Assembly (NCBI RefSeq): GCF_947504145.1
Contig: NZ_CANNGQ010000002.1
Span: 434,001 to 498,000 of the forward strand
Direction of reading: 5' to 3'
From: an uncultured Microbulbifer sp.
Lineage (GTDB): Bacteria > Pseudomonadota > Gammaproteobacteria > Pseudomonadales > Cellvibrionaceae
Length of the DNA: 64,000 nucleotides
Shown: piece by piece, positions 43,376 through 58,727 of the stretch
How the letters are laid out: every line of letters begins with the position of its first letter
Position numbering within the stretch: position 1 is the first letter of the stretch
Made by a program: the position numbers and the translations under genes
Notes under the pieces: generated by a model
Databases searched by the model: none
Told to the model about the DNA's origin: nothing
What the model saw: only the letters and a program-made list of their open reading frames with translations

Positions 43376-45379
43376 TTAAGCGTCTGCAGTTTCAGCGTTG
43401 AAGTCGATCAACAGGCTGCCGCCGTCCACCAGTTCGCCCGCGGCGCAGAAGAACTGATTGACGGTACCGTCCGCCGGCGCGCGCAGGGTGTGCTCCATCT
43501 TCATTGCTTCCATCACCAGCAGCGGCTGGTCTTTGCTGACTCTGGCGCCGGGCTCCGCCAGCAGGGTGACGATGGTGCCGTTCATCGGCGCTTCGAGGCC
43601 GTGTGCGGCGTCGGTATTTTCACCGGTGTCCGGCGGCAGGATTTTGAAGTCCACCTGTTCGCCGCTGACAAACACCGTGCCTTCGCCGTCGTGGGCGACG
43701 CTGGAGTAATTCACCCGGCGTCCGTCCAGTACCGCCACATTCTGGCCGTGGTGCGAGGAGATGGTCCCGCTCTGTGCGTCCACGGCAGAATCGCAACGCC
43801 ACAGCAGGGCCTCGTCGTTGCCGGAAAAGTGGATTTCGATTTCGCGCCCGTGCACTTCCACTTTTTGGCTGCGCCACACGGTCAGTCCGTTGCGCCAGTT
43901 GCTGCCGCTGTGCCAGGGTGAGAACGGATCGGCTTTGGGCGCGCTGCGGTGTTGCGCGCGGGTTTCACTGTGATGCAGGAAGGCGGCGATGGCTGCACAC
44001 TGCTGCGCACGCAGTTGTTGTTCCTGTTGCAGGATTTCCTGCTCGTGGTCTTCGATAAAGTGTGTGGTGACACGACCGTTTACAAACGCGGTGTGGTTGA
44101 TCACCCGGCGCAGGAATTCAATATTGTGGCGCAGACCGGCGATCTGATACTGCTGCAGGGCGCGGTCGAGTTTGGCCAGGGCCTCGCGGCGGTTGCGGCC
44201 GTGCACGATCAGTTTTGAGATCATCGGGTCGTAGTGCACGCTGATTTCATCGCCGGTCTGCACGCCGGTATCCACGCGCACTGCCTGGTCCTGACGCGGG
44301 GGCTGGTGACGCAACAGCTTGCCGGTTGCGGGCAGGAAGTCGTTATCCGGATCTTCAGCGTAGATGCGCACTTCAAAGGCGTGGCCGACGATGTGCAGGT
44401 CGTCCTGTTCCAGCGGCAGGGCTTCGCCCGCGCCCACTGCCAGCTGCCAGGCCACCAGGTCCTGGCCGGTGATCATCTCGGTGACGGGGTGCTCTACCTG
44501 CAGGCGGGTATTCATTTCCATAAAGTAGAAAGCACCGCTGCCGTCCAGCAGGAATTCCACGGTGCCGGCGCCCACATAGCCGATGGCGTGGGCGGCGCGC
44601 AGGGCGGCTTCGCCCATCTTTTTGCGGGTTTCTTCCGGCAGGCCAGGGGCCGGCGCTTCTTCGACCACTTTCTGGTGGCGGCGCTGTACGGAACAGTCGC
44701 GCTCGAACAGGTAAACGCCGTTGCCCTGTTTGTCGCAGAACACCTGGATTTCCACGTGGCGCGGGTTCACTACGTAGCGCTCGATCAGCATGATGTCGTC
44801 GCTGAAGGCGTTCTGCGATTCTCGCTTGGCGGCATCGAGGGCTGCGTGAAAATCGTCGGCCTTGTCTACCCGACGCATACCTTTACCGCCACCACCGGCG
44901 GCGGCTTTGAGCAGCACGGGGTAGCCAATCCGGTTGGCGTGGCCTTCGAGAATCCCTGGGTCTTGATTGGTGCCGTGGTACCCGGGTACCAGCGGCACAT
45001 TGGCTTCTTCCATGATCCGCTTGGCGGCAGATTTGGAGCCCATGGCTTCGATGGCGCCGGCGGGAGGGCCGACAAAGATGATGCCGGCTTCGTCGCAGGC
45101 GCGGCAGAAGCGGGCGTTTTCTGAGAGGAAGCCGTACCCGGGGTGGATGGCGTCTGCGCCGGTGCGTTTGGCGGCGGCGAGGACTTTGTCGACGTCCAGG
45201 TAGGATTCTCTGGCCGGTGCGGGGCCGAGGTGCACGGCTTCATCGGCCTGCTGGACGTGCAGGGCGTTGGCATCTGCGTCGGAATACACCGCAACGGTGG
45301 CGACGCCGAGGCGGCGCGCGGTGCGGATAATACGACAGGCGATTTCGCCGCGGTTGGCGATCAGCAGTTTGCGAATCAT
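43376..45379 (-). CDS. liuD: Methylcrotonyl-CoA carboxylase, biotin-containing alpha subunit
   Basis: A 667-residue subunit with, in order, a biotin carboxylase N-domain ([25 protein letters not shown]), an ATP-grasp domain ([32 protein letters not shown]), a linker and a C-terminal biotinyl domain with the biotinylation lysine in VMEAMKMEH. It carboxylates biotin and, with LiuB, 3-methylcrotonyl-CoA. The full length and the adjacent beta subunit gene distinguish it from acetyl- or propionyl-CoA carboxylase subunits. The gap to liuC is 290 bases and holds two repeat elements. Confidence 0.94.
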
Positions 45380-45443
45380 AGCTGGCTCTGTTTGGTCTTT
45401 CCCGGGTTCTTGGGGGCTCTGTTCTTCGACGGTGGCGGCCGGT

Positions 45444-45540
45444 CGTCGGGGGCAGGTTTTCAGGACCGCTGTGAACCCATCCCTGGGCGCTTCGGCGCAA
45501 ACATCCTGTTTGCGACGATCCTGAAAACCTGCCCCCGACG
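45444..45540. repeat. Compound palindrome, copy A (liuC-liuD gap)
   Basis: Outer arms of 22 nt (45444-45465 and 45519-45540) are perfect reverse complements; the inner end reads GGTTTTCAGGA. Inside is a 7-bp hairpin, CGCAAAC/GTTTGCG (45496-45502, 45508-45514). The conserved core GAACCCATCCCTGGGCGC reads on this strand, so the core orientation is opposite to copies B and C. Confidence 0.9.
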
Positions 45541-45577
45541 CCCGCCCTTCAATTTAAACTTCAGTGCTTCGTAAGCT

Positions 45578-45659
45578 CTGGATTCCGGGGCGAGCCCGGA
45601 ATGACGAATCCAAAAAATAGTTTGGGGTAATGTCATCCCGGACTTGACCCGGGATCCAG
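45578..45659. repeat. Inverted pair of CCGGAATGAC-type repeats
   Basis: Two copies of a short palindromic repeat face each other: one at 45578-45606, ending CCCGGAATGACG, and one at 45632-45659, starting GTCATCCCGGAC. Each is itself dyadic and together they can form a long hairpin around about 25 bases. They resemble short CCGGA-rich extragenic palindromes seen in many proteobacteria. They occupy the liuC-proximal part of the same gap as copy A. Confidence 0.7.
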
Positions 45660-45669
45660 CCAGCGGGGC

Positions 45670-46467
45670 TCAATCCTCGCTCGAATTCATCCAGCTCGGC
45701 GCACGCTTCTCCAGAAACGCACTCAATCCTTCCTGCCCTTCCGGAGATACGCGAACGGCAGCAATTAGAGCACTGGTCTGCCCCTGCAGCTCGTCGTTGA
45801 CGACGCGGTTGGACATAGACATGGCCAGCTGTTTGGCCATGGTCACCGCATTGGGGCCATTGTCGGTAATGCTGTTCACCAGCTTCTGTACCGTCAGGTC
45901 CAGCTCTGCTTCCTGCACTACTTCGGAAACCAGCCCGATTTCTTTTGCGCGTTCCGCGGAGAAGCGCTCGGCGGTGACAAAGTAACGGCGCGCCTGGCGG
46001 GTGCCGATGGCGTTGATGACATACGGGCTGATGGTGGCGGGCAGCAGGCCGATTTTGACTTCGCTCAGGCAGAAGCTGGCGCGCTCGGCGGCGACGGCGA
46101 TGTCGCAGCAGCTGACCAGACCCACCGCGCCGCCAAACGCAGCACCCTGTACGCGGGCGATGGTGGGGGCGGGGAAGTTGTCCAGTTTGTGCAGCATGGC
46201 GGCGAGGGTGGCGGCGTCGGTGCGGTTTTGTTCTTCACTGTAATCCGCCATGCGCTTCATCCAGTTGAGGTCGGCGCCGGCGGAGAAGTTTTTGCCGTTG
46301 GAGGCGAGAATCAGTGCGCGAACACCGCCGCTGCGAGCGAGGTTATCGAAGGTTTCGCCCAGCTGGCGAATCAGGTCGTCGTCGAAGGCGTTGTGGATTT
46401 CCGGACGGTTTAGGGTAACCGTGGCAACGCCTTCGTTGTCGATTTCGCACAGCATTTTTTCGGTCAT
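45670..46467 (-). CDS. liuC: Methylglutaconyl-CoA hydratase (enoyl-CoA hydratase family)
   Basis: A 265-residue crotonase-fold enzyme that hydrates 3-methylglutaconyl-CoA to HMG-CoA. The oxyanion-hole motifs are ILASNGKNFSAGADLNWM and VQGAAFGGAVGLVSCCDIAVA; the LNWM and FGGAVGL forms are typical of LiuC/AtuE-like hydratases. The ATG follows AAGGAATCACC. It lies between liuB and liuD in the leucine operon, which fixes the substrate better than sequence alone. Confidence 0.92.
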   Translation of the reverse strand: MTEKMLCEIDNEGVATVTLNRPEIHNAFDDDLIRQLGETFDNLARSGGVRALILASNGKNFSAGADLNWMKRMADYSEEQNRTDAATLAAMLHKLDNFPAPTIARVQGAAFGGAVGLVSCCDIAVAAERASFCLSEVKIGLLPATISPYVINAIGTRQARRYFVTAERFSAERAKEIGLVSEVVQEAELDLTVQKLVNSITDNGPNAVTMAKQLAMSMSNRVVNDELQGQTSALIAAVRVSPEGQEGLSAFLEKRAPSWMNSSED

Positions 46468-46515
46468 GGTGATTCCTTGAAATTGGCTATAGCTACGGAG
46501 TCGGTAAGGTTCTGA

Positions 46516-46611
46516 TGCCGGTATTGGTTTGCTGGACCTTCAAAAACATGGATGTTTTTGCAGAGCCCCCAGGGATGGGTTTACGGCGTGTCCAGCAAAC
46601 CAATACCGGCA
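46516..46611. repeat. Compound palindrome, copy B (liuB-liuC gap)
   Basis: Outer arms of 21 nt (46516-46536 and 46591-46611) are perfect reverse complements and contain TGCCGGTATTGGTTTGC. An inner 7-bp hairpin CAAAAAC/GTTTTTG (46541-46547, 46554-46560) is followed by the core CCCCCAGGGATGGGTTTAC. Same arm class as copy C. Confidence 0.9.
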
Positions 46612-46646
46612 GCAGGACCCGCACCATACTATCCCCGTGCTCAGAA

Positions 46647-48254
46647 CTACATTCGAAAGACCCCGAACTTGGTCTCTTCAGGTTCCTTGTGAGTGGCCGC
46701 AGCCAGACACAGTCCCAACACGGTGCGGGTGTCTTTCGGGTCGATCACCCCGTCATCCCACAGTCGCGCGGAGGCGTAATATGGATGCCCCTGGTGTTCG
46801 TAGTCATCGATGATCGGCTGCTTGAACTTGGCGATCTCTTCCTCGCTCCAGTCCTCACCTTTCGCCGCCATTTGATCTTTCTTGACCTGCGCCAGTACAC
46901 CGGCGGCCTGTTCGCCACCCATCACCGAGATGCGTGCATTTGGCCACATAAACAGGAAGTTGGGATCGTAAGCGCGGCCACACATGCCGTAATTACCCGC
47001 ACCGAAAGAACCACCGATCAGGATGGTGATTTTGGGCACTTTGGCAGTGGCAACCGCGGTCACCATCTTGGCGCCGTGCTTCGCAATACCGCCAGCCTCG
47101 TACTGCTTGCCCACCATAAAACCGGTGATGTTCTGCAGGAATACCAGCGGAATATTGCGCTGGGCACACAGCTCAATAAAGTGCGCGCCTTTTTGGGCGC
47201 TCTCGGCAAACAGGATGCCGTTGTTGGCAACAATGCCCACCGGGTAACCGTGAATCCGTGCAAAACCGGTCACCAGCGTAGTGCCGTACATCGCCTTAAA
47301 TTCATCAAATTCAGAACCGTCCACAACCCGAGCGATAATCTCGCGCACATCAAACGGTTGGCGGGAATCCTTCGGCACAATGCCGTAGATCTCCTCCGGC
47401 GGATAAATCGGCTCGATCGGCTTTTGCACATCAAGCCCGGGATTCTTCACCCGGTTCAATCGCGATACGGAATTGCGCGCAATCTGCAGCGCGTGGGTAT
47501 CGTTATTGGCAAAATGGTCGGAAACCCCGGAAGTCTTACAGTGCACCTCCGCACCACCTAGCTCCTCCGCCGAAACCTCTTCCCCGGTTGCGGCCTTCAC
47601 CAGCGGCGGTCCCGCCAGGAAAATCGTGGCCTGCTCCTTCACCATAATGGACTCATCCGCCATCGCCGGCACATAAGCACCACCCGCGGTACAGCTGCCC
47701 ATCACCACAGCAATCTGTGGAATATTCTGCGCAGACAGATTCGCCTGGTTGAAGAAGATACGCCCGAAGTGCTCGCGATCCGGGAATACATCGTCCTGGC
47801 GCGGCAGGTTGGCACCGCCGGAATCCACCAGATAAATGCAGGGGAGATTGTTCTGTTCGGCAACGGCCTGCGCGCGCAGGTGCTTCTTCACCGTGAGCGG
47901 ATAATAGGTGCCGCCTTTTACGGTTGCATCGTTGGCAACAATCACACAGGGCTGGCCCGCAACGGTACCAATGCCGGTAAGAATGCCTGCAGCCGGCACG
48001 TCTTCACCGTAAACGTCATAGGCGGCCAGCTGGGAAAACTCCAGAAACGGGCTGCCCGGATCCAGCAGCGTGTCGATACGATCGCGAGGTAGTAGTTTTC
48101 CTCGGGAGACATGCTTCTCCCGCGCCCGCTCGCTGCCGCCTTTGGCGATGGTTTCCAGCTTCTCCCGCAGGTCATCGACGATGCTCTGCATCTGTTCACG
48201 GTTTTCCGCAAACGCCGGGTCTCGGGAATTAATCTTGCTCTGAATCTGATTCAT
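46647..48254 (-). CDS. liuB: Methylcrotonyl-CoA carboxylase beta (carboxyltransferase) subunit
   Basis: A 535-residue carboxyltransferase that moves CO2 from biotin on LiuD to 3-methylcrotonyl-CoA. Two crotonase-like halves are visible. ARERINRLLD-like residues ([34 protein letters not shown]) begin the first. [22 protein letters not shown] and [25 protein letters not shown] mark the acyl-CoA and biotin sites, and the protein ends [27 protein letters not shown], a typical MCC-beta C-terminus. It lies between liuA and liuC. Confidence 0.95.
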
Positions 48255-48304
48255 AAAATCTTACGAAGTTGATTCGTGCTCAGTGCCAAAAGCGAAGGCG
48301 CTGA

Positions 48305-48400
48305 TGCCGGTATTGGTTTGCAGGACCTTCTGCGACAGGGATGTCGCGGAAGAGCCCCCATGGATGGGTTCACGGCGTGTCCTGCAAACCAATACCGGCA
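48305..48400. repeat. Compound palindrome, copy C (liuA-liuB gap)
   Basis: Outer arms of 21 nt (48305-48325 and 48380-48400) are perfect reverse complements with the same TGCCGGTATTGGTTTGC as copy B. The inner hairpin CTTCTGCGAC/GTCGCGGAAG (48328-48337, 48344-48353) has one G-T pair. The core is CCCCCATGGATGGGTTCAC. Confidence 0.9.
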
Positions 48401-48452
48401 GCAGGGCCGCCACGGAGCTTGCAACGAAGCTCACGCGAACCTAATTAAGAAC

Positions 48453-49622
48453 TTAGCGAGTCTCGTTAAACAACTCGCGCCCGATCAACATGCGACGGAT
48501 CTCGGAAGTGCCCGCGCCAATCTCATACAGCTTGGCGTCGCGCAGCAGACGGCCGGTAGCGTACTCATTGATATAACCGTTACCGCCCAGCGTCTGAATA
48601 GCCTGCAGGGCCATCTGCGTCGCACGCTCCGCAGTAAACAGGATTACCGCCGCAGAATCCTTGCGCGAATCCTCACCGCGGTCACAGGCCCGCGCCACCG
48701 CATACAAATACGCACGGCTCGCATTCAGATCCGCATACATATCCGCAACCTTGCCCTGCATCAGCTGGAACTCACCAATCGCCTTGCCGAACTGCTTGCG
48801 CTCGTGCAGGTAGGGCACCACGATATCCAGGCACGCCTGCATAATCCCCACCGGGCCACCGGACAGAATCGTCCGCTCGTAATCCAGACCGCTCATCAGC
48901 ACCCGAACGCCACCGTTCAGCTGCCCCAGAATATTTTCTTCCGGCACCTCACAGTCCTCAAACACCAGCTCACAAGTGTTGGAACCGCGCATCCCCAGCT
49001 TGTCCAGCTTCTGCGCCTGCGAGAAGCCCTTGAAACCGCGCTCAACAATAAACGCCGTAATACCACCAGAGCTGATGCCCGGCTCCGTGCGCGCATAGAT
49101 CACATACGTGTGTGCATCGGGACCATTGGTGATCCACATCTTGTTGCCGTTCAGGATAAAACGGTCGCCTTTCTTTTCCGCCTTCAACTGCAGGCTCACC
49201 ACATCGGAGCCGGAGTTCGGCTCACTCATCGCCAGCGCACCAATGTGCTCACCGGAACACAGCTTAGGCAGATACTTCGCCTTCTGCTCCGCAGTGCCGT
49301 TCTTGCGAATCTGGTTCAAACACAGGTTCGAGTGGGCACCGTAAGACAGACCGACCGATGCGGACGCGCGGGAAATCTCCTCCATCGCCACCGCATGGGC
49401 CAGATAGCCCATATTCGAGCCGCCGTATTCCTCTTCCACGGTCATGCCCAACAGGCCCAGCTCGCCGAACTTCTTCCACATGTCGGCGGGGAAAAGATTG
49501 TCTTCATCGATCTGCGCCGCGCGCGGGGCCAGTTCTGCCTGACAGAACTTGTAGACCATATCCCGCAGCATTTCGATGTCTTCACCGAGGCCGAAGTTGA
49601 GGGTTGGGTAAGGCGTGTTCAT
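48453..49622 (-). CDS. liuA: Isovaleryl-CoA dehydrogenase
   Basis: A 389-residue FAD-dependent acyl-CoA dehydrogenase that oxidises isovaleryl-CoA to 3-methylcrotonyl-Co[20 protein letters not shown], the FAD/substrate motif [24 protein letters not shown] and the catalytic-glutamate context [25 protein letters not shown] are typical of isovaleryl-CoA dehydrogenases, as is the C-terminal [23 protein letters not shown] precedes the ATG. It is the first enzyme gene after liuR. Confidence 0.94.
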
Positions 49623-49675
49623 GGGCTGCTCCGCAATGAATCAGTCAGAGTGTGTTTGAAATAAGGTTTTCAGGG

Positions 49676-50068
49676 TTATTTGCTTTGTTCTTTCAGCGCC
49701 GCCCGGGTGCGGGCGCTGGCATCGTCCAGCTGTGCGAGCATCTTTTCGATGTCCCGCTGCTGCTCGCGCAACTGCTGGCGCTTGCTGTCGATGCGGTCGA
49801 GGAGACGGTTGAGCTGCTCCACATTGCCGTGGGCCGGGTCGTACATATCGATGATTTCCCGGCTCTCATCCAGCGAGAAGCCCAGACGCTTGCCACGCAG
49901 GATCAGCTTCAGGCGCACCCGGTCTTCCGGTGTGTACACACGCGTCTGCCCGCGCCGCTGAGGGGTCAGAAGCCCCTTGTCTTCATAGAAGCGGATCGTG
50001 CGGGTGGTGATCCCGAACTCCTGGGCCAGCTCGGAGATGCTGTAGCTGTGGGCGGTGGTAGTGCTCAT
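49676..50068 (-). CDS. liuR: MerR-family regulator of leucine/isovalerate degradation
   Basis: A 130-residue MerR-type regulator. The N-terminal helix-turn-helix and wing are YSISELAQEFGITTRTIRFYEDKGLLTPQRRGQTRVYTPEDRVRLKLI, followed by a dimerisation coiled coil (about residues 80-125). It lacks the cysteines of metal-sensing MerR proteins. It is the first gene of the liu operon, 53 bases before liuA, and a perfect palindrome of the LiuR type lies 53 bases upstream of its start, which points to autoregulation of the whole operon. Confidence 0.92.
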   Translation of the reverse strand: MSTTTAHSYSISELAQEFGITTRTIRFYEDKGLLTPQRRGQTRVYTPEDRVRLKLILRGKRLGFSLDESREIIDMYDPAHGNVEQLNRLLDRIDSKRQQLREQQRDIEKMLAQLDDASARTRAALKEQSK

Positions 50069-50120
50069 TCGGCCAGGGTGCTCATGGATAGTCCTCAGAT
50101 CTGCCGGAAGTCTAGTTGAC

Positions 50121-50138
50121 GTTTACGTTAACGTAAAC
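50121..50138. promoter_or_regulatory. LiuR operator
   Basis: GTTTACGTTAACGTAAAC is a perfect 18-bp palindrome upstream of liuR. It contains the TTTACG/CGTAAA half sites described for LiuR in proteobacteria. Only one copy is visible in the window. Confidence 0.85.
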
Positions 50139-50202
50139 CTCGATCTTCGCCAATGCATGACTGTTGTTGGATGGTTGGTCAAGGCTGGGTGGGCGTGGAA
50201 AG

Positions 50203-50231
50203 CGGAAAATGGCGCCCATGAAAGGGCGCCA
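50203..50231 (-). terminator. Terminator of the S9 peptidase gene
   Basis: TGGCGCCC (50210-50217) pairs with GGGCGCCA (50224-50231), loop of 6. On the minus strand the stem is followed by TTTTCC. It starts 8 bases beyond the stop at 50239. Confidence 0.7.
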
Positions 50232-50238
50232 GAAATGA

Positions 50239-52323
50239 TCAGTCTTCTTCTGTCGTGTTGGTAGCAAGGAGCGATTTTTTCGCGACAGCTTCTTTCAGAC
50301 CAGGTACAAATTCGGCGCCTTGCACCACTTGGATGCTGGAGTCCGAGAGGTCATCACCAATAGGCTGGAAGCGCCCGCCTAAACAATCCGCGAGGAAAGA
50401 CTCGGCCGCAGCAAAGAACGAAAGGTTGTTTTCTGGCTTCTGGAAGCCGTGGCCTTCGTCCGGATACAGGATATACGTCACCGGTAATTGCTTGGCCTGC
50501 ATGGCACTCACAATCTGGTCCGACTCGGCTTGTTTAACCCGTGGATCGTTGGCGCCCTGCCCAATCAATAGCGGCTTCTTGATATTGTCGACGAAGTTGA
50601 GCGGAGAGCGTTCCTCCAGAAGTTTTCTGCCCACTTCAGTTTCCGGATTGCCGACTGCACTGTGCAGTACTTTCTTGAAGCCTTCCCAATAGGGCGGCAC
50701 GGACTCAAGCAGGGTATTCAGATTGGATGGGCCGACGATATCCACACCGCAAGCAAAGGTTTCGGGTGTGAAGGTGAGGCCGACCAGCGTTGCGTAGCCA
50801 CCGTAGCTGCCGCCCATAATGGCCACGGTCTCTTTGGTAGTGACTTTCTTGTCGATAGCCCAATCCACCGCGTCCAGCAGGTCATGGTGCATGGCGGCGG
50901 CCCACTCACCGTTTCCCGCATTGACAAAATTTTTGCCGAAGCCGGTGGAAGCGCGAAAGTTGACCTGCAGCACCGCATATCCACGATTGGCGAGCCAGCT
51001 GGCGGCGGCGTCGTCGGCAAAGTTGTCGCGGCTCCAGGGGCCTCCGTGCACCAGCAATACCATGGGAACTGGCGAATCGACTTTGCCACCTTTGTCCGCT
51101 TCAACCGGCAGTGTCAGATAAGACACCAGATCTAGGCCATCCCGTGATTGGATGGTCTGTGGATAAGTGCGAGGAAGCGCAAACGCATTGAGCTCCGGTT
51201 TTCCCGCGAACAGCGGGGTTAGGGTTTGCGTGCTGCGGTCGAAAACTTCGTAGACATCAGATTCGGTATCACGGGAAGAAACGGTCAGCCACTGCATGCC
51301 ATCGAGTGTGGTACCGAGTATGGTGATATCGCCATTGGCCTGTTTGTTCAGTGCGGCCACATCGTCCTTGACCTTTTCATCCAGCCCTATCCATTCGTGC
51401 TTGTGGAAATTGACTGCGTAGGCCATCGGCGTGTGGTTGGTGGGATTCATTACCACGCTGGAAATATCCGCCCTGTTCGACTCGGCCAGCACGGTAAGCT
51501 TGCCGGAGGCCAGTGTCAGGTGTGTCAGTGCAGCCTTGTCCCGGCCACGGCTGTCCTGCAAATAGATGCCGCTGTTGTCTTTGTCGAAGCCGAGAATATA
51601 AGTGGTGAGCGCATCCTCCCGCGGAATATCGAACAGCTCTACCCAGTCCTGCTCAATTTTTTGTGACACGGTAAATCCACCGTTGGCGGATGGGGTCAGT
51701 CCGAGTCTTACCTGCAGGTCGTGGTCGACAATCAGTTCGGCAAAACCGGCATTTTCCACCAGCAATGTACGCTCCGCGGTCTGCAGATCAATCAGGTAGG
51801 GGTCATGCCAGCGTGGATCCCGGTCATTGATACCGACGACAACTTGCCCGGGGTGGTCCTCGCTTTGCGCGATCATCGTGGCGGAGATATCTTCGTATGG
51901 GGTCAGGTCGGTAATTTCGTCGGTGTGTAGATCAACACTGAACAGGTGCCAGTTTTCATCGCCGTTGTTGTCGCGAATAAACAGCAGGTTTTCGCTGTCT
52001 AGCGACCAGAAATGTTGCCGGATACCTCGACCGGTATCTTCGGTGACGGCCCTGGCGGCGTCGAAATTACCCGCAGGTGCCACCCAGACGTTCATCACGC
52101 CGTCCAACGGAGCGAGGAAGCTCATCATTTCGCCGTCCGGGCTCAGGCGCCCCTGCCAGCGAGTGGGATTGCCGAATAATAAATCCCGGTCAATCAGCGG
52201 AGTGGTTTGTGCTGTTTCAGAGACGATATCGGTTTCTGTGGAAGCATCTTCTTGTTTTGGGGCGCATGCCGCGATCAAACCTACGATGGCGAATACACCA
52301 ATAACTCTCCTGTATCTGTTCAT
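50239..52323 (-). CDS. S9-family (prolyl oligopeptidase-type) peptidase, lipoprotein
   Basis: A 694-residue serine peptidase. The N-terminal VIGVFAIVGLIAAC is a lipobox, so the mature protein is probably lipid-anchored in the envelope. Residues about 60-400 are the beta-propeller. The C-terminal hydrolase domain contains MVLLVHGGPWSRDN, the nucleophile in MGGSYGGYATLVG, an Asp in GANDPRV and the catalytic His in DEGHGFQKPENNL. It would cleave short peptides, perhaps after proline. The ATG chosen follows GAAGGAATCTGGCA; the 41 in-frame residues upstream lack a signal peptide. It is divergent from the sigma factor gene. Confidence 0.87.
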   Translation of the reverse strand: MNRYRRVIGVFAIVGLIAACAPKQEDASTETDIVSETAQTTPLIDRDLLFGNPTRWQGRLSPDGEMMSFLAPLDGVMNVWVAPAGNFDAARAVTEDTGRGIRQHFWSLDSENLLFIRDNNGDENWHLFSVDLHTDEITDLTPYEDISATMIAQSEDHPGQVVVGINDRDPRWHDPYLIDLQTAERTLLVENAGFAELIVDHDLQVRLGLTPSANGGFTVSQKIEQDWVELFDIPREDALTTYILGFDKDNSGIYLQDSRGRDKAALTHLTLASGKLTVLAESNRADISSVVMNPTNHTPMAYAVNFHKHEWIGLDEKVKDDVAALNKQANGDITILGTTLDGMQWLTVSSRDTESDVYEVFDRSTQTLTPLFAGKPELNAFALPRTYPQTIQSRDGLDLVSYLTLPVEADKGGKVDSPVPMVLLVHGGPWSRDNFADDAAASWLANRGYAVLQVNFRASTGFGKNFVNAGNGEWAAAMHHDLLDAVDWAIDKKVTTKETVAIMGGSYGGYATLVGLTFTPETFACGVDIVGPSNLNTLLESVPPYWEGFKKVLHSAVGNPETEVGRKLLEERSPLNFVDNIKKPLLIGQGANDPRVKQAESDQIVSAMQAKQLPVTYILYPDEGHGFQKPENNLSFFAAAESFLADCLGGRFQPIGDDLSDSSIQVVQGAEFVPGLKEAVAKKSLLATNTTEED

Positions 52324-52543
52324 TGCCAGATTCCTTCGGTGTGAGGGGTTATAGGGGTACATCAATGCAATATCCTGCTCAGAATTACACAGGATGAGAC
52401 GAGATGATACGGGACCTACTCGAGGTCTTGAGCTCGCCGGCTGCACAATTGGAAAATTTATGTAAGGTTTTGGCGCCTCTGGGTACAGTAGTTGGCTATA
52501 CCCGCATCAGGCGGCCTCAACCGATGGACAGAAGAAGCATAAA

Positions 52544-53041
52544 TTGGACGCGCGCGAACAACTATTTCAGCAGCTGATCGAGGACTGCGGTGGCGGTATT
52601 GCCCGCCTGGCGGGCAGCTATGTGCGCAACCGGGCCGAGCGGGAAGACCTGGTGCAGGAGATCTGGCTGGCCATCTGGCGCGCCCTGCCTGGCTTCCGCG
52701 GGGATTCAAGCCTGCGCACCTTCGCCTACCGTATTGCCCACAATCGCAGCGTTACCCAGTTGGCCCGTCGCCGTGATAGTGAAGACAGCGAGGTGCTGGA
52801 TACGGTCGCCGACGAGCGGCCGGGCCCGGAGGCGCAACTGGTGCAGAGCCGTGACGCCGAGCGGCTGATGCGTGCGGTGTCCCGGTTGCCCCTGGGGATG
52901 CGGCAGGTGCTGACCCTGCGCTTCGAAGGTCTGAGTTACAGCGAAATATCCGAGGTGCTGGGGATCAGCGAGTCCAATGTGGCGGTGCGCCTCAATCGCG
53001 CGCGCGAACGCCTGAATACAAAACTGAATGAAACGGTGTGA
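52544..53041 (+). CDS. ECF-type RNA polymerase sigma factor
   Basis: A 165-residue sigma-70 family factor of the extracytoplasmic-function class. Region 2 is visible at residues 22-70 (AGSYVRNRAEREDLVQEIWLAIWRALPGFRG...FAYRIAHNRSV), and region 4 at 110-160 (LPLGMRQVLTLRFEGLSYSEISEVLGISESNVAVRLNRARERL). It starts at TTG with GAAGAAG upstream; no in-frame ATG is available. The stop overlaps the next gene by 4 bases, so that membrane protein is a natural anti-sigma candidate. Target promoters are unknown. Confidence 0.85.
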   Translation: MDAREQLFQQLIEDCGGGIARLAGSYVRNRAEREDLVQEIWLAIWRALPGFRGDSSLRTFAYRIAHNRSVTQLARRRDSEDSEVLDTVADERPGPEAQLVQSRDAERLMRAVSRLPLGMRQVLTLRFEGLSYSEISEVLGISESNVAVRLNRARERLNTKLNETV

Positions 53042-53682
53042 ATCAGCACATGAGTAAAAGAGAAAGCGGCCAGCCCGCCGCTGATCAAAACGCAGATGAT
53101 GGCCTGCAGGAATTCGCGAACCTGTGGCAACAGGCTCCGGTAACCCCGCCGGTAGCCGAGGCCATTCGCGCACAGGTAGGCCGGCAGGAGCGTCGCATGC
53201 GCTGGTATGCGTGGTTTGAGTGGCTCGCGTCGCTGGTGGTCGGTGTGGGCGGTATCTATCTGATGCTCAATAGTGAGGCTGGCGATGCGCTCTGGCGCGC
53301 GCTGCTGGTGATCGTGCTTTTGGCCTGTGCCATGGCCTTTTCTGTTTCAAACCGCCGTGGCGTGTGGGAGCCACTGGAGGAGTCGGTGCGCGGTTATCTG
53401 GATCTGGCGCGACTGCGACTGGTGCGCAAGCGCCGCATGTTGCGTTTTGCCTGGCTATTTTTTATTGCGGAGCTGGGGATTTTTGCAGTGTGGCAGTGGC
53501 TGTCGGGCTATGGCTGGCTGGAGCCCATTTTCGCAGGTGACGGTCGCTTTGCTGCTACCTGGATATTGGTGTTTGCACTGGCGATGGGTGGCTGGAGTAT
53601 CTGGTACTGGCATCGGATTAAAAGTGGTGAGCAGCAGATTGCAAAATGGCAGCGGGAAAATATCGAGGCGACTGAAAAATAA
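53038..53682 (+). CDS. Membrane protein co-translated with the sigma factor (anti-sigma candidate)
   Basis: A 214-residue protein with a soluble N-terminus (1-55, FANLWQQAPVTPP) and four hydrophobic segments (about 60-78, 84-102, 134-155, 168-188). The GTG start overlaps the sigma stop (GTGA), and an ATG 12 bases later is also possible. The family is not recognised. The position and the topology of cytosolic N-terminus plus membrane helices are what an anti-sigma factor would have, but no zinc-binding HxxxCxxC motif is seen. Confidence 0.7.
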   Translation: MNQHMSKRESGQPAADQNADDGLQEFANLWQQAPVTPPVAEAIRAQVGRQERRMRWYAWFEWLASLVVGVGGIYLMLNSEAGDALWRALLVIVLLACAMAFSVSNRRGVWEPLEESVRGYLDLARLRLVRKRRMLRFAWLFFIAELGIFAVWQWLSGYGWLEPIFAGDGRFAATWILVFALAMGGWSIWYWHRIKSGEQQIAKWQRENIEATEK

Positions 53683-53770
53683 AGTGTAAGAAAACGGATG
53701 GCGCTGATACTACACAAGGTGTCGATCGATTCGCTATTAATTCACGCAAATAATCTGAGAGAGTTTCATC

Positions 53771-54058
53771 ATGTTGTCGAACCTTGAACAAAAATTTTCC
53801 GGCTTCCTTGATCTGCTTGCACAAATGGGCCCGCTGCAGACTATGGCCTTCGTCATTTTCTTTTTTGCGATCTGGTTTTTACCGAGCCTTCTCGCAATCT
53901 TTTTCAACCGTGGGCATCTTGGGAAGATTTTCCTCGCCAATATTCCTGCAGGATTGTCGTGGATCGCCTGGGTGGCACTGTTGGTATGGGCTACAACCGG
54001 CAAGATGAGCGGAAAGCTGGCGAAAAATACGGGTCTGACGGTTCGCCGGTGGCGATGA
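53771..54058 (+). CDS. Superinfection-immunity-like small membrane protein
   Basis: A 95-residue protein with two hydrophobic segments (about 22-45 and 50-72). FFFAIWFLPSLLAIFFNRGHLGKIFLANIPAGLSWIAWVALLVWA follows the pattern of the phage T4 Imm-like superinfection immunity family (a helix with PxxxA, then xxIFxxNxxxGxxxIxWxxALxWA). Chromosomal members are common and of unknown role. It follows the sigma/membrane-protein pair by 88 bases. Confidence 0.65.
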   Translation: MLSNLEQKFSGFLDLLAQMGPLQTMAFVIFFFAIWFLPSLLAIFFNRGHLGKIFLANIPAGLSWIAWVALLVWATTGKMSGKLAKNTGLTVRRWR

Positions 54059-54119
54059 AGGCGGAGAGCTAATCCCGACACATAGGCCCGGTCGCAGTGT
54101 TCGAATAGCGCATTGCAGA

Positions 54120-54157
54120 GCCTTCGCTTGTACCCGTGAAGGGGAGCAAGCGAAGGC
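54120..54157. terminator. Stem-loop between convergent genes before hutH
   Basis: GCCTTCGCTTG (54120-54130) and CAAGCGAAGGC (54147-54157) are perfect 11-bp arms with a 16-base loop, between the stops of the Imm-like gene (54058) and hutH (54185). No T-tract is visible on either strand. Confidence 0.5.
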
Positions 54158-54184
54158 GCTTAGTGCCTGGGTTCGGTGCAAGTG

Positions 54185-55735
54185 TTACTGGTTGCTCGGC
54201 AGCATCTCACTTGCCAGGTATTCGCGGTAATACGCACTCGCCAGCAGCTGCTTGGCGTCCTCGATATCCGGCGCGAAGTAGCGGTCCTTATCATAGAAGG
54301 GCACACGCTCGCGCAGAGCGGCCTTGGCGCTTTCCAGTTTCCCGGTAGTCTTCAGCGGCGCGCGGAAGTCGAGGCCCTGACAGGCGGCCAGCAGTTCGAC
54401 GGCGAGGATGCCGCAGGTATTGTCGGCCATATCCCGCAGGCGGCGACCGGCGAAGGTGGCCATGGAGACGTGGTCTTCCTGGTTGGCAGAAGTGGGCAGG
54501 GAGTCGACGCAGGCCGGGTGGGCAAAGGTCTTGTTCTCGCTGGCGAGCGCCGCGGAGGTCACCTGGGCGATCATAAAGCCGGAGTTTACTCCGCCGTTGT
54601 CTACCAGGAAGGGCGGCAGGCCGGACAGGTTGGAGTCGATCAGCAGCGCCATGCGGCGCTCGGACAGGGAGCCGATTTCGGCGATTGCCAGGGCCAGGTT
54701 GTCCGCCACCATCGCCACCGGTTCCGCGTGGAAGTTACCACCGGAAATGATGTCGGAGTTTTCCGGATTTTCCTCATCGGTAAAGACCAGCGGGTTATCC
54801 GACACCCCATTGGCTTCCGCCAGTAACACTTCAGATGCAAAACGGATCTGCTGCAGACACGCACCCATCACCTGGGGCTGACAGCGCAGTGAATACGGAT
54901 CCTGCACTTTCTCGCAGTCTTCATGGGATTCGCCAATCTCACTTTTTTCACCCAACAGATCGCGGTAGCTCGCGGCCACATCGCGCTGGGCGATTTGGCC
55001 GCGGGCGGCGTGGATACGATCGTCGAAAGGGCGGCGGGAGCCCTTGGCGGCTTCCAGGGTCAGCGCTCCGGTCACCACCGCGCCGGCGAACAGGTCTTCC
55101 GCGCTGAACATTCCCTGCAGGGCAAAGGCGGTGGATGCCTGGGTGCCGTTCAGCAGTGCCAGACCTTCCTTCGGTGCCAGCACCAGCGGGCGCATTTCCG
55201 CAAAGCGCAGGCCCTCGGCAGCCGCTTTGCGCTCGCCATTGATAAAGCACTCGCCTTCGCCCAGTAGCACCACGCTCATATGGGCCAGTGGCGCCAGGTC
55301 ACCGGAGGCGCCTACGGAACCTTTTTCCGGAATGGCCGGATACACGCCGGCGTTGACCAGTTTGATCAGCGCCTGAATCACTTCCAGGCGAATGCCGGAA
55401 AAGCCGCGGGCCAGGGAGTTGATCTTCAGCACCATCAGCAGGCGCACGGTGTCTTCACTCATAAAGTTGCCGGTGCCGGCGGCGTGAGAGAGGACGATGG
55501 CGCGCTGCAGGGTTTCCAGGTCTTTCTTTTCGATGCGGGTATTCGCCAGCAGACCGAAGCCGGTGTTGATGCCGTACACGGTGCGGCCCTGTTCCAGCAC
55601 GTCGGCCACGGTTTTGGCGGAGGCTTCGATGGCGGCGTGGGCGGATTTATCCAGGGTCAGCTTGACCGGCTCGCGGGATACGCGGCGTAGTTGCTCCAGG
55701 CTCAGTTGGCCGGGGGTGATTTGCAGTTGGTACAT
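54185..55735 (-). CDS. hutH: Histidine ammonia-lyase
   Basis: A 516-residue lyase that removes ammonia from histidine to give urocanate. The Ala143-Ser144-Gly145 triad in [14 protein letters not shown] forms the MIO electrophile by autocatalysis. YGINTGFG, the [15 protein letters not shown] motif and the [14 protein letters not shown] block are all intact. The length is usual for HutH. It is the last gene of the leftward hutC-hutU-hutH series; an 88-base gap with a palindromic repeat separates it from hutU. Confidence 0.96.
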
Positions 55736-55771
55736 AAGTTTTTTACCGAAATCCGAATTTGGGTCTTGCCT

Positions 55772-55797
55772 GTAGGAGCCTGGAAGCAGGCTCCTGC
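55772..55797. repeat. Palindromic repeat (GCAGGAGCCTG type), copy 2
   Basis: GTAGGAGCCTG (55772-55782) and CAGGCTCCTGC (55787-55797) form a hairpin with one G-T-type mismatch and a 4-base loop in the hutH-hutU gap. The arms match those of the element at 4864-4932, here without the inner stem. Confidence 0.7.
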
Positions 55798-55823
55798 GGG
55801 GTGAAAATGCTCAGGCTGTGGCG

Positions 55824-57497
55824 TTAATCCTTGAGCATCGGCAGGTCCAGGCCCTGCTCTTTCGCGCACTCTTTGGCGATGTCATAGCCTGCATCCGCGT
55901 GGCGCATCACACCGGTGGCCGGGTCGTTCCACAGTACGCGCGCGACACGTTTTTTCGCCGCCTCGGTACCGTCACACACGATCACCACACCACTGTGCTG
56001 GGAGAAGCCCATGCCCACGCCGCCGCCGTGGTGCAGGCTCACCCAGGTGGCACCACTTGCGGTATTCAGCAGCGCATTCAGCAGCGGCCAGTCGGAGACG
56101 GCGTCACTGCCGTCCTGCATGGATTCGGTTTCGCGGTTGGGGCTGGCGACGGAGCCGGAGTCGAGGTGGTCGCGGCCAATCACAACCGGTGCTTCCAGTT
56201 CGCCGTTGGCGACCATTTCGTTAAACGCCAGCGCGAGGCGCGCGCGGTCTTTCAGGCCGACCCAGCAGATACGCGCGGGCAGGCCCTGGAACTGGATGCG
56301 CTCGCGGGCCATGTCCAGCCAGTTGTGCAACTGGGGATTATCCGGGATCAGTTCTTTTACCTTGGCATCGGTTTTGTAGATGTCTTCCGGGTTGCCACTG
56401 AGTGCCGCCCAGCGGAAGGGGCCTATGCCCTCGCAGAACAGCGGGCGGATATACGCGGGTACGAAGCCGGGGAAGTCGAAGGCGTTTTCCACACCTACTT
56501 CAAATGCCATCTGGCGGATGTTGTTGCCGTAGTCGAGGGTGGCGGCGCCGCGCTCCTGCAGGGTGAGCATGGCCTGCACCTGCACACCCATGGATTTTTT
56601 CGCTTCTTTGACTACCAGCGCTTCGTCGCGCTTACGCATTTCGGCCGCCTGGTCCATGGTCCAGCCTTGCGGCAGGTAGCCGTTTAGCGGGTCGTGGGCG
56701 GAGGTCTGGTCGGTGACGCAGTCGGGGAGAATGTTGCGCTCGACAATTTCCGGGAATACATCGGCGGCGTTGCCGAGCAGGCCTACGGAAATGGCTTCAC
56801 CTTTTTCCATGGCGTCGTTGATCATCGCCAGAGCTTCGTCGAGGCTGGTGGCTTTTTTGTCGACGTAGCCGGTGCGAAGGCGGAAGTCGATGCGGGTTTC
56901 ATCGCACTCGACGGCGATCATGCAGAAGCCGGCCATGGTGGCAGCCAGCGGCTGAGCGCCGCCCATGCCGCCGAGGCCGCCGGTGAGTACCCATTTGCCT
57001 TTGGCTTCACCGTCGAAGTGTTTGCGGGCCACTGCGGCAAAGGTTTCGTAGGTGCCCTGGACGATGCCCTGGGAGCCGATGTAGATCCAGGAGCCGGCGG
57101 TCATCTGGCCGTACATGGCCAGGCCTTTTTTATCCAGCTCGTTGAAGTGTTCCCAGTTGGCCCAGTGGGGGACGAGGTTGGAGTTGGCGATCAATACGCG
57201 GGGGGCGTCGGCGTGGGTTCTGAACACGCCGACGGGTTTGCCGGATTGGACCAGTAGTGTTTCGTCGTCCTCTAAACGCTTGAGCACTTCAACGATTTTG
57301 TCGTAGCACTCCCAGTCCCGCGCAGCGCGGCCGATGCCACCGTAAACAACGAGATCTTCCGGGCGTTCGGCCACGTCCGGGTGCAGGTTGTTCATCAGCA
57401 TGCGCAGGGGGGCTTCGGTGAGCCAGCTTTTGGCATTCAGCTTGGTGCCGGTAGGTGCGGCGATTTTGCGGCTGGGGTCGTGGCGTTTATCGGTCAT
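55824..57497 (-). CDS. hutU: Urocanate hydratase
   Basis: A 557-residue NAD-dependent enzyme that converts urocanate to imidazolonepropionate. The family is highly conserved and recognisable throughout: [28 protein letters not shown], the glycine-rich [27 protein letters not shown] loop and [30 protein letters not shown]. The C-terminal [23 protein letters not shown] carries the active-site region. The ATG of [11 protein letters not shown] with GAGG upstream is chosen over a start 21 bases earlier. The gene follows hutC with a gap holding palindrome copy D. Confidence 0.96.
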
Positions 57498-57610
57498 GGT
57501 TGCCTCGTTTATTTCCAAATTCTGTGGGTAATTTTGAATCGGATTTTTGGTTGGGCTTTTAGCCCGGTGGTATTGGGTGCTCCGGATTTAAGTCCGGTGG
57601 CGGCGGGGTA

Positions 57611-57704
57611 CCGGGTAAGAGTTTTCAGGACCGCTGTGAACCCATCCATGGGCGCTGCGGCGGCGACGTCCCTGTCGCCGACGCTCCTGAAAACTCTTAC
57701 CCGG
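57611..57704. repeat. Compound palindrome, copy D (hutC-hutU gap)
   Basis: Outer arms of 20 nt (57611-57630 and 57685-57704) are perfect reverse complements and extend to 26 nt with one mismatch (57605-57710). The inner hairpin is GGCGAC/GTCGCC (57662-57667, 57674-57679) and the core GAACCCATCCATGGGCGC. Same arm class and orientation as copy A. Confidence 0.9.
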
Positions 57705-57748
57705 CACCCCACCTTAAATTCGAGTTTCTGTGCTTCGTTTCTGACTAG

Positions 57749-58486
57749 TTAAAACCTTAGTTGTGCGCCCAGTCGGTATCGGTTTCCCGGATGTACCAAC
57801 CGCGCAAAACTCACCGTGCCCGCACTACTTTTAGTCCGTCGCCAGATCTGCAGGCAGGCGGTGCCCGGCTGGATCTCCAGCGCGCTTCCGACGGTGTCGT
57901 CTGCGCCAATGGCCTCAACCGTGGTATCCACCTCCGTCAGCGGCGCCACGCGGGTCAGGTATTCATTGGGTGTAGCCGTGCTGAAGTCCTGTTGCAGGTA
58001 TTCCGGCACCAGTGTGGGGTTGGTATAGCGTTCTTCGAACTGGATCGGCAGGCCGTTGTCCAGGTGCACGATGATGGAGTGGAAGACAGCGCTGCCTTCG
58101 GTCAGGCCGAGGGCGACGGCGACTTCGGTGCTGGCGGTGGTTTGTTCGAGCTTGAGGATGCGGTTGCTATAACTGTGACCGCGGGCGGCGACTTCGTCGG
58201 CGATATTGCGGACTTCCAGCAGGGAGCCTGCGGGCACCGGTTCGGCGACGAAGGTGCCGAGGCCCTGGGAGCGGATCAGCACGCCCTCGTCGGTGAGCTC
58301 GCTGAGGGCGCGGCGCGCGGTCATGCGGCTGACGTTGAAGTCCTGGGCGAGCTGATTTTCCGAGGGCACGCGGAAGTGGGCGGGCCATTCACCGGATTCG
58401 ATCTGGGCGCGGATATGCGCCTTGATGGCGGCGTAGCGGGGCTGGCTGCCGTTCTCTGCGCCGGTTGTGGAAAACTGACTGCTCAT
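57749..58486 (-). CDS. hutC: Histidine utilisation repressor, GntR family
   Basis: A 245-residue repressor. Residues about 18-85 are the GntR winged helix (YAAIKAHIRAQIESGEWPAHFRVPSENQLAQDFNVSRMTARRALSELTDEGVLIRSQGLGTFVAE). Residues 95-240 are a UTRA effector domain that in HutC binds urocanate. The ATG of MSSQFSTTG is preferred; the in-frame extension upstream would run over the operator. The gene is divergent from hutI and is transcribed with hutU and hutH, so it represses its own operon and probably hutIG. Confidence 0.93.
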   Translation of the reverse strand: MSSQFSTTGAENGSQPRYAAIKAHIRAQIESGEWPAHFRVPSENQLAQDFNVSRMTARRALSELTDEGVLIRSQGLGTFVAEPVPAGSLLEVRNIADEVAARGHSYSNRILKLEQTTASTEVAVALGLTEGSAVFHSIIVHLDNGLPIQFEERYTNPTLVPEYLQQDFSTATPNEYLTRVAPLTEVDTTVEAIGADDTVGSALEIQPGTACLQIWRRTKSSAGTVSFARLVHPGNRYRLGAQLRF

Positions 58487-58537
58487 ACTTGTGTGGTCTT
58501 TGCTTGCTCGGGTAGAGTGTGTTCCGAGTTGTACATT

Positions 58538-58551
58538 CTTGTATATACAAG
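58538..58551. promoter_or_regulatory. HutC operator
   Basis: CTTGTATATACAAG is a perfect 14-bp palindrome between the divergent hutC (start 58486) and hutI (start 58728) genes. It contains the TGTATATACA core known for HutC sites in pseudomonads. Confidence 0.85.
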
Positions 58552-58727
58552 TTTGTTGATGGGGCAACTATGGATTTGATCGGGGTTGCTGTCAATACGT
58601 GGGGCGGTTGGTTGCGTTCGCGCAGGTACCCGGCCGCCACGGAACTAGAAAGACCCCAAGTGAGAATCCGCGCCAAACTCCTCCAACAGGGCTATCGTTA
58701 CAAATAACGCCAATTCAGTGAGTGACT

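What the first reader, a model, noticed from the sequence alone, without database searches (positions are those of the whole stretch)
45444..57704. A family of compound palindromes with conserved core and copy-specific, self-complementary arms
Four elements of about 95 nt (45444-45540, 46516-46611, 48305-48400, 57611-57704) share one design: a 20-22-nt outer arm, a small inner hairpin of variable sequence, an asymmetric core GCCCCCATGGATGGGTT (or close variants), then the exact complement of the outer arm. The core is conserved across copies. The arms fall into two classes (TGCCGGTATTGGTTTGC in B and C; GGTTTTCAGGA-ended in A and D), yet each pair is perfectly complementary. Such arm co-variation means either selection on the folded RNA/DNA or a copying mechanism that makes one arm from the other. 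They are larger and more elaborate than ordinary REP or ERIC elements.
Basis: partly seen in the sequence, partly recalled or inferred. Interest (0 to 1): 0.78.

Follow-up and report, generated by a model that had tools for sequence, protein, structure and literature searches.

The report
Dispersed Y-shaped hairpin repeats
Many gammaproteobacteria carry up to tens of copies of a roughly 100-base folded repeat whose one strand forms a Y with two loops that look like docking sites for the global regulator CsrA, so a mobile repeat may be scattering regulator-binding sites around genomes.

Summary
The four elements are 4 of 60 copies in this genome; the family occurs patchily in Gammaproteobacteria (73 of 369 sampled genomes). 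Each copy has a long self-complementary outer stem enclosing two small hairpins. Sequence varies but pairing is kept (91.9% of cells paired against 57.9% shuffled).

Two new facts. (1) On one strand, the "GGA strand", both hairpin loops read CANGGAYG, nearly invariant while their stems vary; this fits the published RsmE/CsrA optimum. (2) In strict arms the mismatches on that strand are 82 G·U to 10 A·C, with a similar bias for copies sense or antisense to genes. That argues for selection on one folded strand (RNA or single-stranded DNA) and against strand-symmetric copying or cruciforms.

One relative moves as a 165-bp MITE with terminal inverted repeats and 9-bp target duplications (17 of 22 perfect). 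REP-type transposases are not regularly linked.

Best reading: a MITE/REP-like repeat carrying a dual CsrA/RsmA-binding hairpin. The repeat and its fold are well supported; CsrA binding is inferred. Antisense copies remain unexplained.

The parts
45444..45540 (-). Element A (class 2); GGA strand is -, sense to the operon. Arms 45444-45465 and 45519-45540; hairpin 2 loop (CAGGATG on -) 45502-45508; hairpin 1 loop (CAGGGATG on -) 45478-45485
   Evidence: sequence, arms, fold, model match C2:479455-479529
46516..46611 (+). Element B (class 1); GGA strand is +, antisense to the operon. Arms 46516-46537 and 46590-46611; hairpin 2 loop CATGGATG 46547-46554; hairpin 1 loop CAGGGATG 46570-46577
   Evidence: sequence, arms, fold, model match C2:480526-480601
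48305..48400 (+). Element C (class 1); GGA strand is +, antisense to the operon. Arms 48305-48326 and 48379-48400; hairpin 2 loop CAGGGATG 48336-48343; hairpin 1 loop CATGGATG 48359-48366
   Evidence: sequence, arms, fold, best model match of the genome C2:482315-482390
57611..57704 (-). Element D (class 2); GGA strand is -, sense to the flanking genes. Arms 57611-57630 and 57685-57704; hairpin 1 loop (CATGGATG on -) 57643-57650; hairpin 2 loop (CAGGGACG on -) 57667-57674
   Evidence: sequence, arms, fold, model match C2:491620-491695
43376..49622 (-). Setting of A-C: four co-directional genes, acyl-CoA dehydrogenase (48453-49622), carboxyltransferase (46647-48254), enoyl-CoA hydratase (45670-46467), biotin carboxylase/biotinyl subunit (43376-45379); the elements lie in the three gaps
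   Evidence: Pfam
55824..58567 (-). Setting of D: the gap between a GntR/UTRA regulator gene (57749-58567) and urocanase (55824-57518)
   Evidence: Pfam

Best explanation
A dispersed MITE/REP-like repeat of Gammaproteobacteria. Its GGA strand, when single-stranded (most simply as RNA), folds into a Y: a long outer stem encloses two short hairpins whose loops both present CANGGAYG, the preferred binding site of CsrA/RsmA proteins. Shown here: the family, the fold, the covariation, the loop conservation, the strand asymmetry, and movement by a target-duplicating mechanism in one lineage. Inferred: a transcript that crosses the element from its GGA side offers two loops, about 23 nt apart, to the two RNA-binding faces of one CsrA dimer, and so either titrates CsrA or puts a CsrA site on the host transcript; the long stem presents the loops and may be cut by a double-strand RNase. 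Copies diverge and swap inner hairpins, while selection on the folded strand keeps the stems paired.
For: Family and copies. Fold and covariation: (23 of 25 pairs change on both sides; sliding the partner by 1-3 columns drops pairing to 28-45%). Both loops C-A-N-G-G-A-Y-G at 91-100% per fixed position; hairpin 2 was not constrained by the search pattern, and GGA is at its apex in 141 of 154 copies automatically, with 10 of the other 13 holding GGA by eye. RsmE optimum A/UCANGGANGU/A read in a passage of PMC5864733. Two A-N-GGA motifs 22-24 nt apart in 53 of the 54 own copies that could be measured. One-strand asymmetry: 82 G·U to 10 A·C in 154 copies, 45 to 9 without positions 19 and beyond, 78 to 12 in own copies. 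csrA is found in 68 of 73 element-positive and 245 of 296 element-negative genomes (Fisher p 0.03; 59 of 60 against 221 of 254 among near-complete genomes, p 0.009). Mobility: G300 copies 96-100% identical among eight sites with 9-bp duplications, 17 of 22 perfect.
Against: No binding or expression datum. 18 of 60 own copies are antisense to both flanking genes and 1 is divergent, yet antisense copies keep the same fold and bias; no promoter was found that would transcribe B or C. On the model-fitted alignment the arm bias is weaker (57 to 26), hairpin 2 stems show none (7 to 5) and hairpin 1 shows the reverse (3 G·U to 17 A·C, probably largely at the loop-closing A-U/A·C position); class 1 copies sense to both neighbours show 2 to 2. 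Single-stranded DNA also tolerates G·T, and folds more stably on the GGA strand. Five element-positive genomes, all drafts and one 98% complete, show no csrA even in a relaxed search. In the own genus no target duplication was found.
Confidence: 0.45

Rival explanations
1. A purely selfish repeat. The folded GGA strand is needed as single-stranded DNA or RNA for mobilisation, and the GGA loops are contacts for a transposase or other mobility protein, not for CsrA.
For: Patchy spread, recent copies with target duplications in G300, frequent inverted pairs (22 in one order, 4 in the other, in 100 diverse loci) like REP dimers, and a bias that ignores gene direction. Single-stranded DNA folds of the GGA strand are at least as stable as the other strand's.
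Against: No partner was found: one Y1_Tnp match in the own genome with an apparently degenerate active site, and an element in only 1 of 31 Y1_Tnp loci examined. The G300 vehicle has terminal inverted repeats and 9-bp duplications, as expected of a DDE-type enzyme acting on ends outside the Y. It does not explain why the loops match the CsrA optimum.
Confidence: 0.3
2. A transcribed REP/NEMIS-like RNA hairpin that stabilises or processes host mRNA (double-strand RNase site, 3'-end protection), with the GGA loops incidental.
For: Long near-perfect stems, intergenic position with only 1 of 60 own copies between divergent genes; Neisseria elements cleaved by RNase III are a precedent (title in the reference list of PMC3733652; otherwise recalled).
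Against: It predicts no preference for one strand irrespective of gene direction; the bias is present in antisense copies. No terminator is formed by the Y stem (5 terminator-like sites against 3.9 expected; one overlaps the outer edge of C's arm but uses a 7-pair hairpin). It does not explain invariant GGA in both loops.
Confidence: 0.15
3. A mutational mechanism (quasipalindrome correction, template switching or gene conversion between arms) keeps the arms identical without selection.
For: Near-perfect arms; recombination does act on the element: a chimera with unmatched arms at site C of L161, collapsed copies at site A of L150 and L157, shared inner hairpins with different arms.
Against: Such mechanisms treat the strands alike and predict equal G·T and A·C; 82 to 10 was seen, unchanged by gene direction. 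They do not act on loops.
Confidence: 0.08

Closest known systems
CsrA/RsmA-binding hairpins and sponge RNAs (CsrB/C, RsmX/Y/Z; RsmU of Xanthomonas)
   Same: Paired GGA motifs in hairpin loops, CANGGANG consensus (PMC5864733, passage); RsmU comes from a 3' UTR (PMC7694677, passages).
   Different: Those are single genes; this is a dispersed repeat with 60 copies. No Rfam match at gathering cut-offs in the window. The comEA loci of four Xanthomonas genomes, where RsmU lies, hold no CATCCNTGG core. Binding untested here.
REP elements (GTAG and CGTC superfamilies; REPINs) and RAYTs
   Same: Short intergenic palindromes, inverted pairs, few copies between divergent genes, patchy spread (PMC3733652, passages).
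   Different: Much longer outer stem, Y fold, two GGA loops. Own hairpin 2 is often preceded by CGTC or CTTC, but the A-T pairs at the stem base and the CCA tail described for CGTC REPs are lacking. No RAYT link.
CGTC-1 heterodimers inside a 41-bp palindrome of Halothiobacillus neapolitanus (Di Nocera 2013)
   Same: Two hairpins inside a palindrome whose consensus has 'attcacg' just before the 3' arm, as the conserved TTCACG here.
   Different: Reported for one species as REP dimers in a target palindrome; sequence of the dimers not seen (figure not held) and genome not searched. Possible prior sighting, not tested.
MITEs such as NEMIS/Correia, and ERIC
   Same: 100-170 bp palindromic intergenic repeats; in G300 a genuine MITE.
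   Different: Recalled ERIC and Correia sequences have no match in the window with up to 3 mismatches. Here the stem varies and the loops are fixed, unlike a fixed-end MITE.

Membership tests
CsrA/RsmA-binding RNA | A-N-GGA in hairpin loops, optimum CANGGANG | tested here: met
   both loops, 139 matches; 141 of 154 automatic plus 10 by eye for hairpin 2
CsrA/RsmA-binding RNA | a CsrA homologue in the genome | tested here: inconclusive
   present in the own genome and 68 of 73 carriers; not found in five drafts
CsrA/RsmA-binding RNA | transcription of the strand with GGA | not testable with these tools
   no expression data; 18 of 60 own copies are antisense to both neighbours
CsrA/RsmA-binding RNA | physical binding | not testable with these tools
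   needs gel shift or CLIP
MITE | terminal inverted repeats and target duplications | tested here: met
   in G300 only: CAGCAATTCCCA ends, 9-bp duplications perfect in 17 of 22
MITE | the same in the window's own genome | tested here: not met
   5 of 60 copies have any direct repeat of 8 bp or more in the flanks, at no consistent place
REP with RAYT | Y1 (RAYT-type) transposase linked to the repeat | tested here: not met
   own genome one Y1_Tnp match, HUH apparently lost (motif recalled); G012 and G013 carry the element without a Y1_Tnp match; element in 1 of 31 Y1_Tnp loci
REP with GTAG/CGTC tag | GTAG or CGTC unpaired tag, short 5-13 bp stem | tested here: inconclusive
   CGTC or CTTC often precedes hairpin 2 in own copies, but the whole element is a long-stemmed Y
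ERIC | ERIC consensus (recalled) | tested here: not met
   0 matches in the window with up to 3 mismatches
Correia/NEMIS | Correia terminal repeat (recalled) | tested here: not met
   0 matches in the window with up to 3 mismatches
Intrinsic terminator | stem followed by a T tract | tested here: not met
   the Y stems of A-C are not among the 5 terminator-like sites (3.9 expected); one site overlaps the edge of C's arm; D not scanned
Rfam family | match over the curated score | tested here: not met
   0 in the window; five loci at E 1 gave 10 sub-threshold hits, miRNA or other sRNA hairpins

The most novel reading that the evidence does not exclude
A class of selfish or semi-selfish repeats spreads CsrA/RsmA docking sites through genomes: a distributed sponge and raw material for rewiring a global post-transcriptional regulon. 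A second, nested repeat unit with two GGA-loop hairpins suggests that other repeats share or converged on the same design.
Probability: 0.33. Interest if true: 0.87.

Novelty: new variant of a known kind. Interest (0 to 1): 0.64.

Why it matters
If right, a mobile repeat carries binding sites for a global RNA-binding regulator: 60 copies would give this genome about 120 potential sites. That would tie repeat turnover to Csr/Rsm regulation, much as transposons scatter transcription-factor sites in eukaryotes, and it can be tested by gel shift and CLIP in carriers. Even without CsrA, the strand-specific mismatch count offers a simple way to tell, for any bacterial palindromic repeat, whether a folded strand rather than DNA symmetry keeps it paired.

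Tried and rejected
RAYT partner: not supported. The genus comparison is weakened because the exact pattern misses variant cores: G039 is negative but positive with the model. RsmU: four Xanthomonas comEA loci have no CATCCNTGG core. Rfam: nothing over cut-off; sub-threshold hits look like chance hairpins. Replication-strand rule: positions of three single-contig genomes (one list cut off) were looked at by eye, assuming an origin near position 0: mixed orientation. Own-genome target duplications: none consistent. Plasmids and phages: one element as blastn query, no match at E 0.01; so short a conserved core gives low sensitivity. Promoters and terminators around A-C: at chance level. Outside the class: 33 of 398 genomes of a phylum sample match and all 33 are in the window's class, but how many of the 398 lie outside it was not shown. 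Print: no description found in ten searches for core sequences, CsrA with repeat or palindrome terms, and repeat terms with host names; the library holds only open-licence PMC papers, and figures and supplements were not seen.
Full report
OBSERVATION. The four elements lie where stated. Arms pair perfectly over 22, 22, 22 and 20 bp and folding is far beyond shuffles on both strands. A, B and C sit in three consecutive gaps of four co-directional genes; D lies between a GntR-type regulator gene and urocanase.

FAMILY. The exact core occurs 34 times in this genome, 58 times with up to 2 mismatches, against 5 for the reversed pattern. A covariance model from 60 copies finds 60 places at E<1e-4. 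In the genus the exact core is in 31 of 48 genomes, 0-63 copies each, a lower bound since G039 has variant copies. In the class 73 of 369 genomes match. In a phylum sample 33 of 398 match, all in the same class.

ARMS. Of 180 distinct full-length core matches in L001-L177, 140 have an arm score of 10 or more and 123 of 15 or more; with flanks swapped between copies the figures are 28 and 4 of 1994. On 139 model matches from 100 diverse loci, 91.9% of cells form standard pairs against 57.9% shuffled, and 23 of 25 pairs change on both sides. That alignment was fitted to the structure, which leans it in favour.

WHICH STRAND. In 154 copies with strict arms of at least 10 bp, the GGA strand has 82 G·U to 10 A·C mismatches and 51 purine-purine to 7 pyrimidine-pyrimidine. 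Without positions 19 and beyond, where conserved mismatches recur, it is 45 to 9 (summed). In own copies, arms taken as a fixed 30 positions, it is 78 to 12. By setting: 20 to 4 for copies sense to both neighbours, 22 to 3 antisense, 14 to 1 between convergent genes; but class 1 sense copies show 2 to 2. In the operon of A-C across the genus it is 7 to 0 for copies antisense to the operon and 15 to 1 for sense copies, with 9 of the 15 at the first two junction positions (42 of 50 copies used). Strand-symmetric mechanisms do not predict this, and neither does mutation bias tied to transcription. Against it: on the model-fitted alignment, which includes poorly registered arms, the arm bias is 57 to 26, hairpin 2 shows 7 to 5, and hairpin 1 shows 3 G·U to 17 A·C, probably largely the loop-closing pair. 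Single-stranded DNA also tolerates G·T and folds at least as well on the GGA strand, so RNA is likely but not proved.

LOOPS. On the GGA strand both hairpins end in CANGGAYG while their stems vary. Hairpin 2 was not constrained by the search pattern: GGA is at its apex in 141 of 154 copies by automatic folding, 10 of the other 13 hold GGA by eye, and L038, L082 and L094 do not. The A-N-GGA motifs are 22-24 nt apart in 53 of 54 measured own copies. The RsmE optimum is A/UCANGGANGU/A (PMC5864733, passage). csrA is in the own genome, in 68 of 73 element-positive and in 245 of 296 element-negative genomes (p 0.03; 59 of 60 against 221 of 254 among near-complete genomes, p 0.009), which genome size or descent could explain. 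A relaxed search found no csrA over the cut-off in the five exceptions, all drafts of 210-350 contigs.

MOBILITY AND TURNOVER. In G300 eight copies at unrelated sites are 96-100% identical over about 165 bp, a ninth about 90%. They end in CAGCAATTCCCA inverted repeats (289 matches in that genome with up to 2 mismatches); of 22 copies with both ends, 17 have a perfect 9-bp target duplication and 21 hold the core. Arms travel with the unit there. In the own genus boundaries are blurred and no consistent duplication was found. At orthologous gaps of the operon in 30 genus loci, arms and inner hairpins differ between species yet mostly still pair; gap B is empty in several and holds an inverted copy in L158, L161 and L163; L150 and L157 carry collapsed copies; L161 carries a chimera with unmatched arms. 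Inner hairpin types recur among copies with different arms, which suggests conversion of the core. Y1 transposases do not track the family: the own genome has one match, apparently without the HUH residues, G012 and G013 carry the element with no match, and 1 of 31 Y1_Tnp loci holds an element. Inverted pairs within about 450 bp are frequent in L032-L131, 22 in one order and 4 in the other.

CONTEXT. A simple codon-usage gene finder puts the 60 own copies as 26 tandem-sense, 18 tandem-antisense, 7 convergent, 1 divergent, 7 inside a called ORF and 1 at a locus edge, a REP-like placement. Promoter- and terminator-like sites around A-C are at chance level; one terminator-like site overlaps the edge of C's arm.

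READING. The strongest statement is that this is a Gammaproteobacteria-wide dispersed repeat, unnamed in what I searched, under selection for a Y-shaped fold of one strand. The best functional reading is a dual CsrA/RsmA-binding hairpin on a MITE/REP-like repeat. How antisense copies would be transcribed is unexplained. Prior art: no Rfam family, no core sequence in open full text (one search's single hit is an unrelated rat circRNA paper, listing only). Di Nocera 2013 (PMC3733652, passages) reports H. neapolitanus REP dimers inside a palindrome with an 'attcacg' edge, which may be a relative. RsmU (PMC7694677, passages) is a different RNA. PMC9788540 (passages) and PMC12306157 (search inside, one reference hit) do not describe it.

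Noticed in passing
L306, L313, L316, L321, L334 (G300); L255, L257 (own genome); L168 (genus): A nested unit of about 49 bp sits inside the element, sometimes twice; it has two hairpins with GGA loops (like CAAGGATG and GCAGGAGC) on the strand opposite to the host element's GGA strand. Its GCAGATTTTGCAGGAGC part is in 14 of 340 loci.
   Followed up: partly
L341:1788-3152 (G594): A tandem array of six 227-bp units, each with one element in the same direction: twelve potential GGA loops in a row.
   Followed up: partly
45577-45661: Beside element A lie two CGTC-type REP-like hairpins in inverted order (CTGGATTCCGGGG...ATGACG and TGTCATCCCGGACTTGACCCGGGATCCAG).
   Followed up: partly
L153, L260, L261, also L149, L161: Variant cores carry an extra GGGGGGCGCCTAGCTC-like stretch in place of TTCACGGCG.
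   Followed up: no
L150, L157 (site A), L157 (site B), L161 (site C): Collapsed or chimeric copies show short-repeat deletions and exchange between copies; L161 site C has unmatched arms.
   Followed up: partly
L031:1462-2229: The only Y1_Tnp match of the own genome seems to lack the HUH residues (NMIQ where NHVH is usual, motif recalled), so it looks like a domesticated RAYT relative.
   Followed up: no
L225-L230 (G118): Next to the elements lie further small hairpins with CATGGATG or CAGGGATG tips (GGTGCATGGATGCACC) inside longer composite repeats.
   Followed up: no
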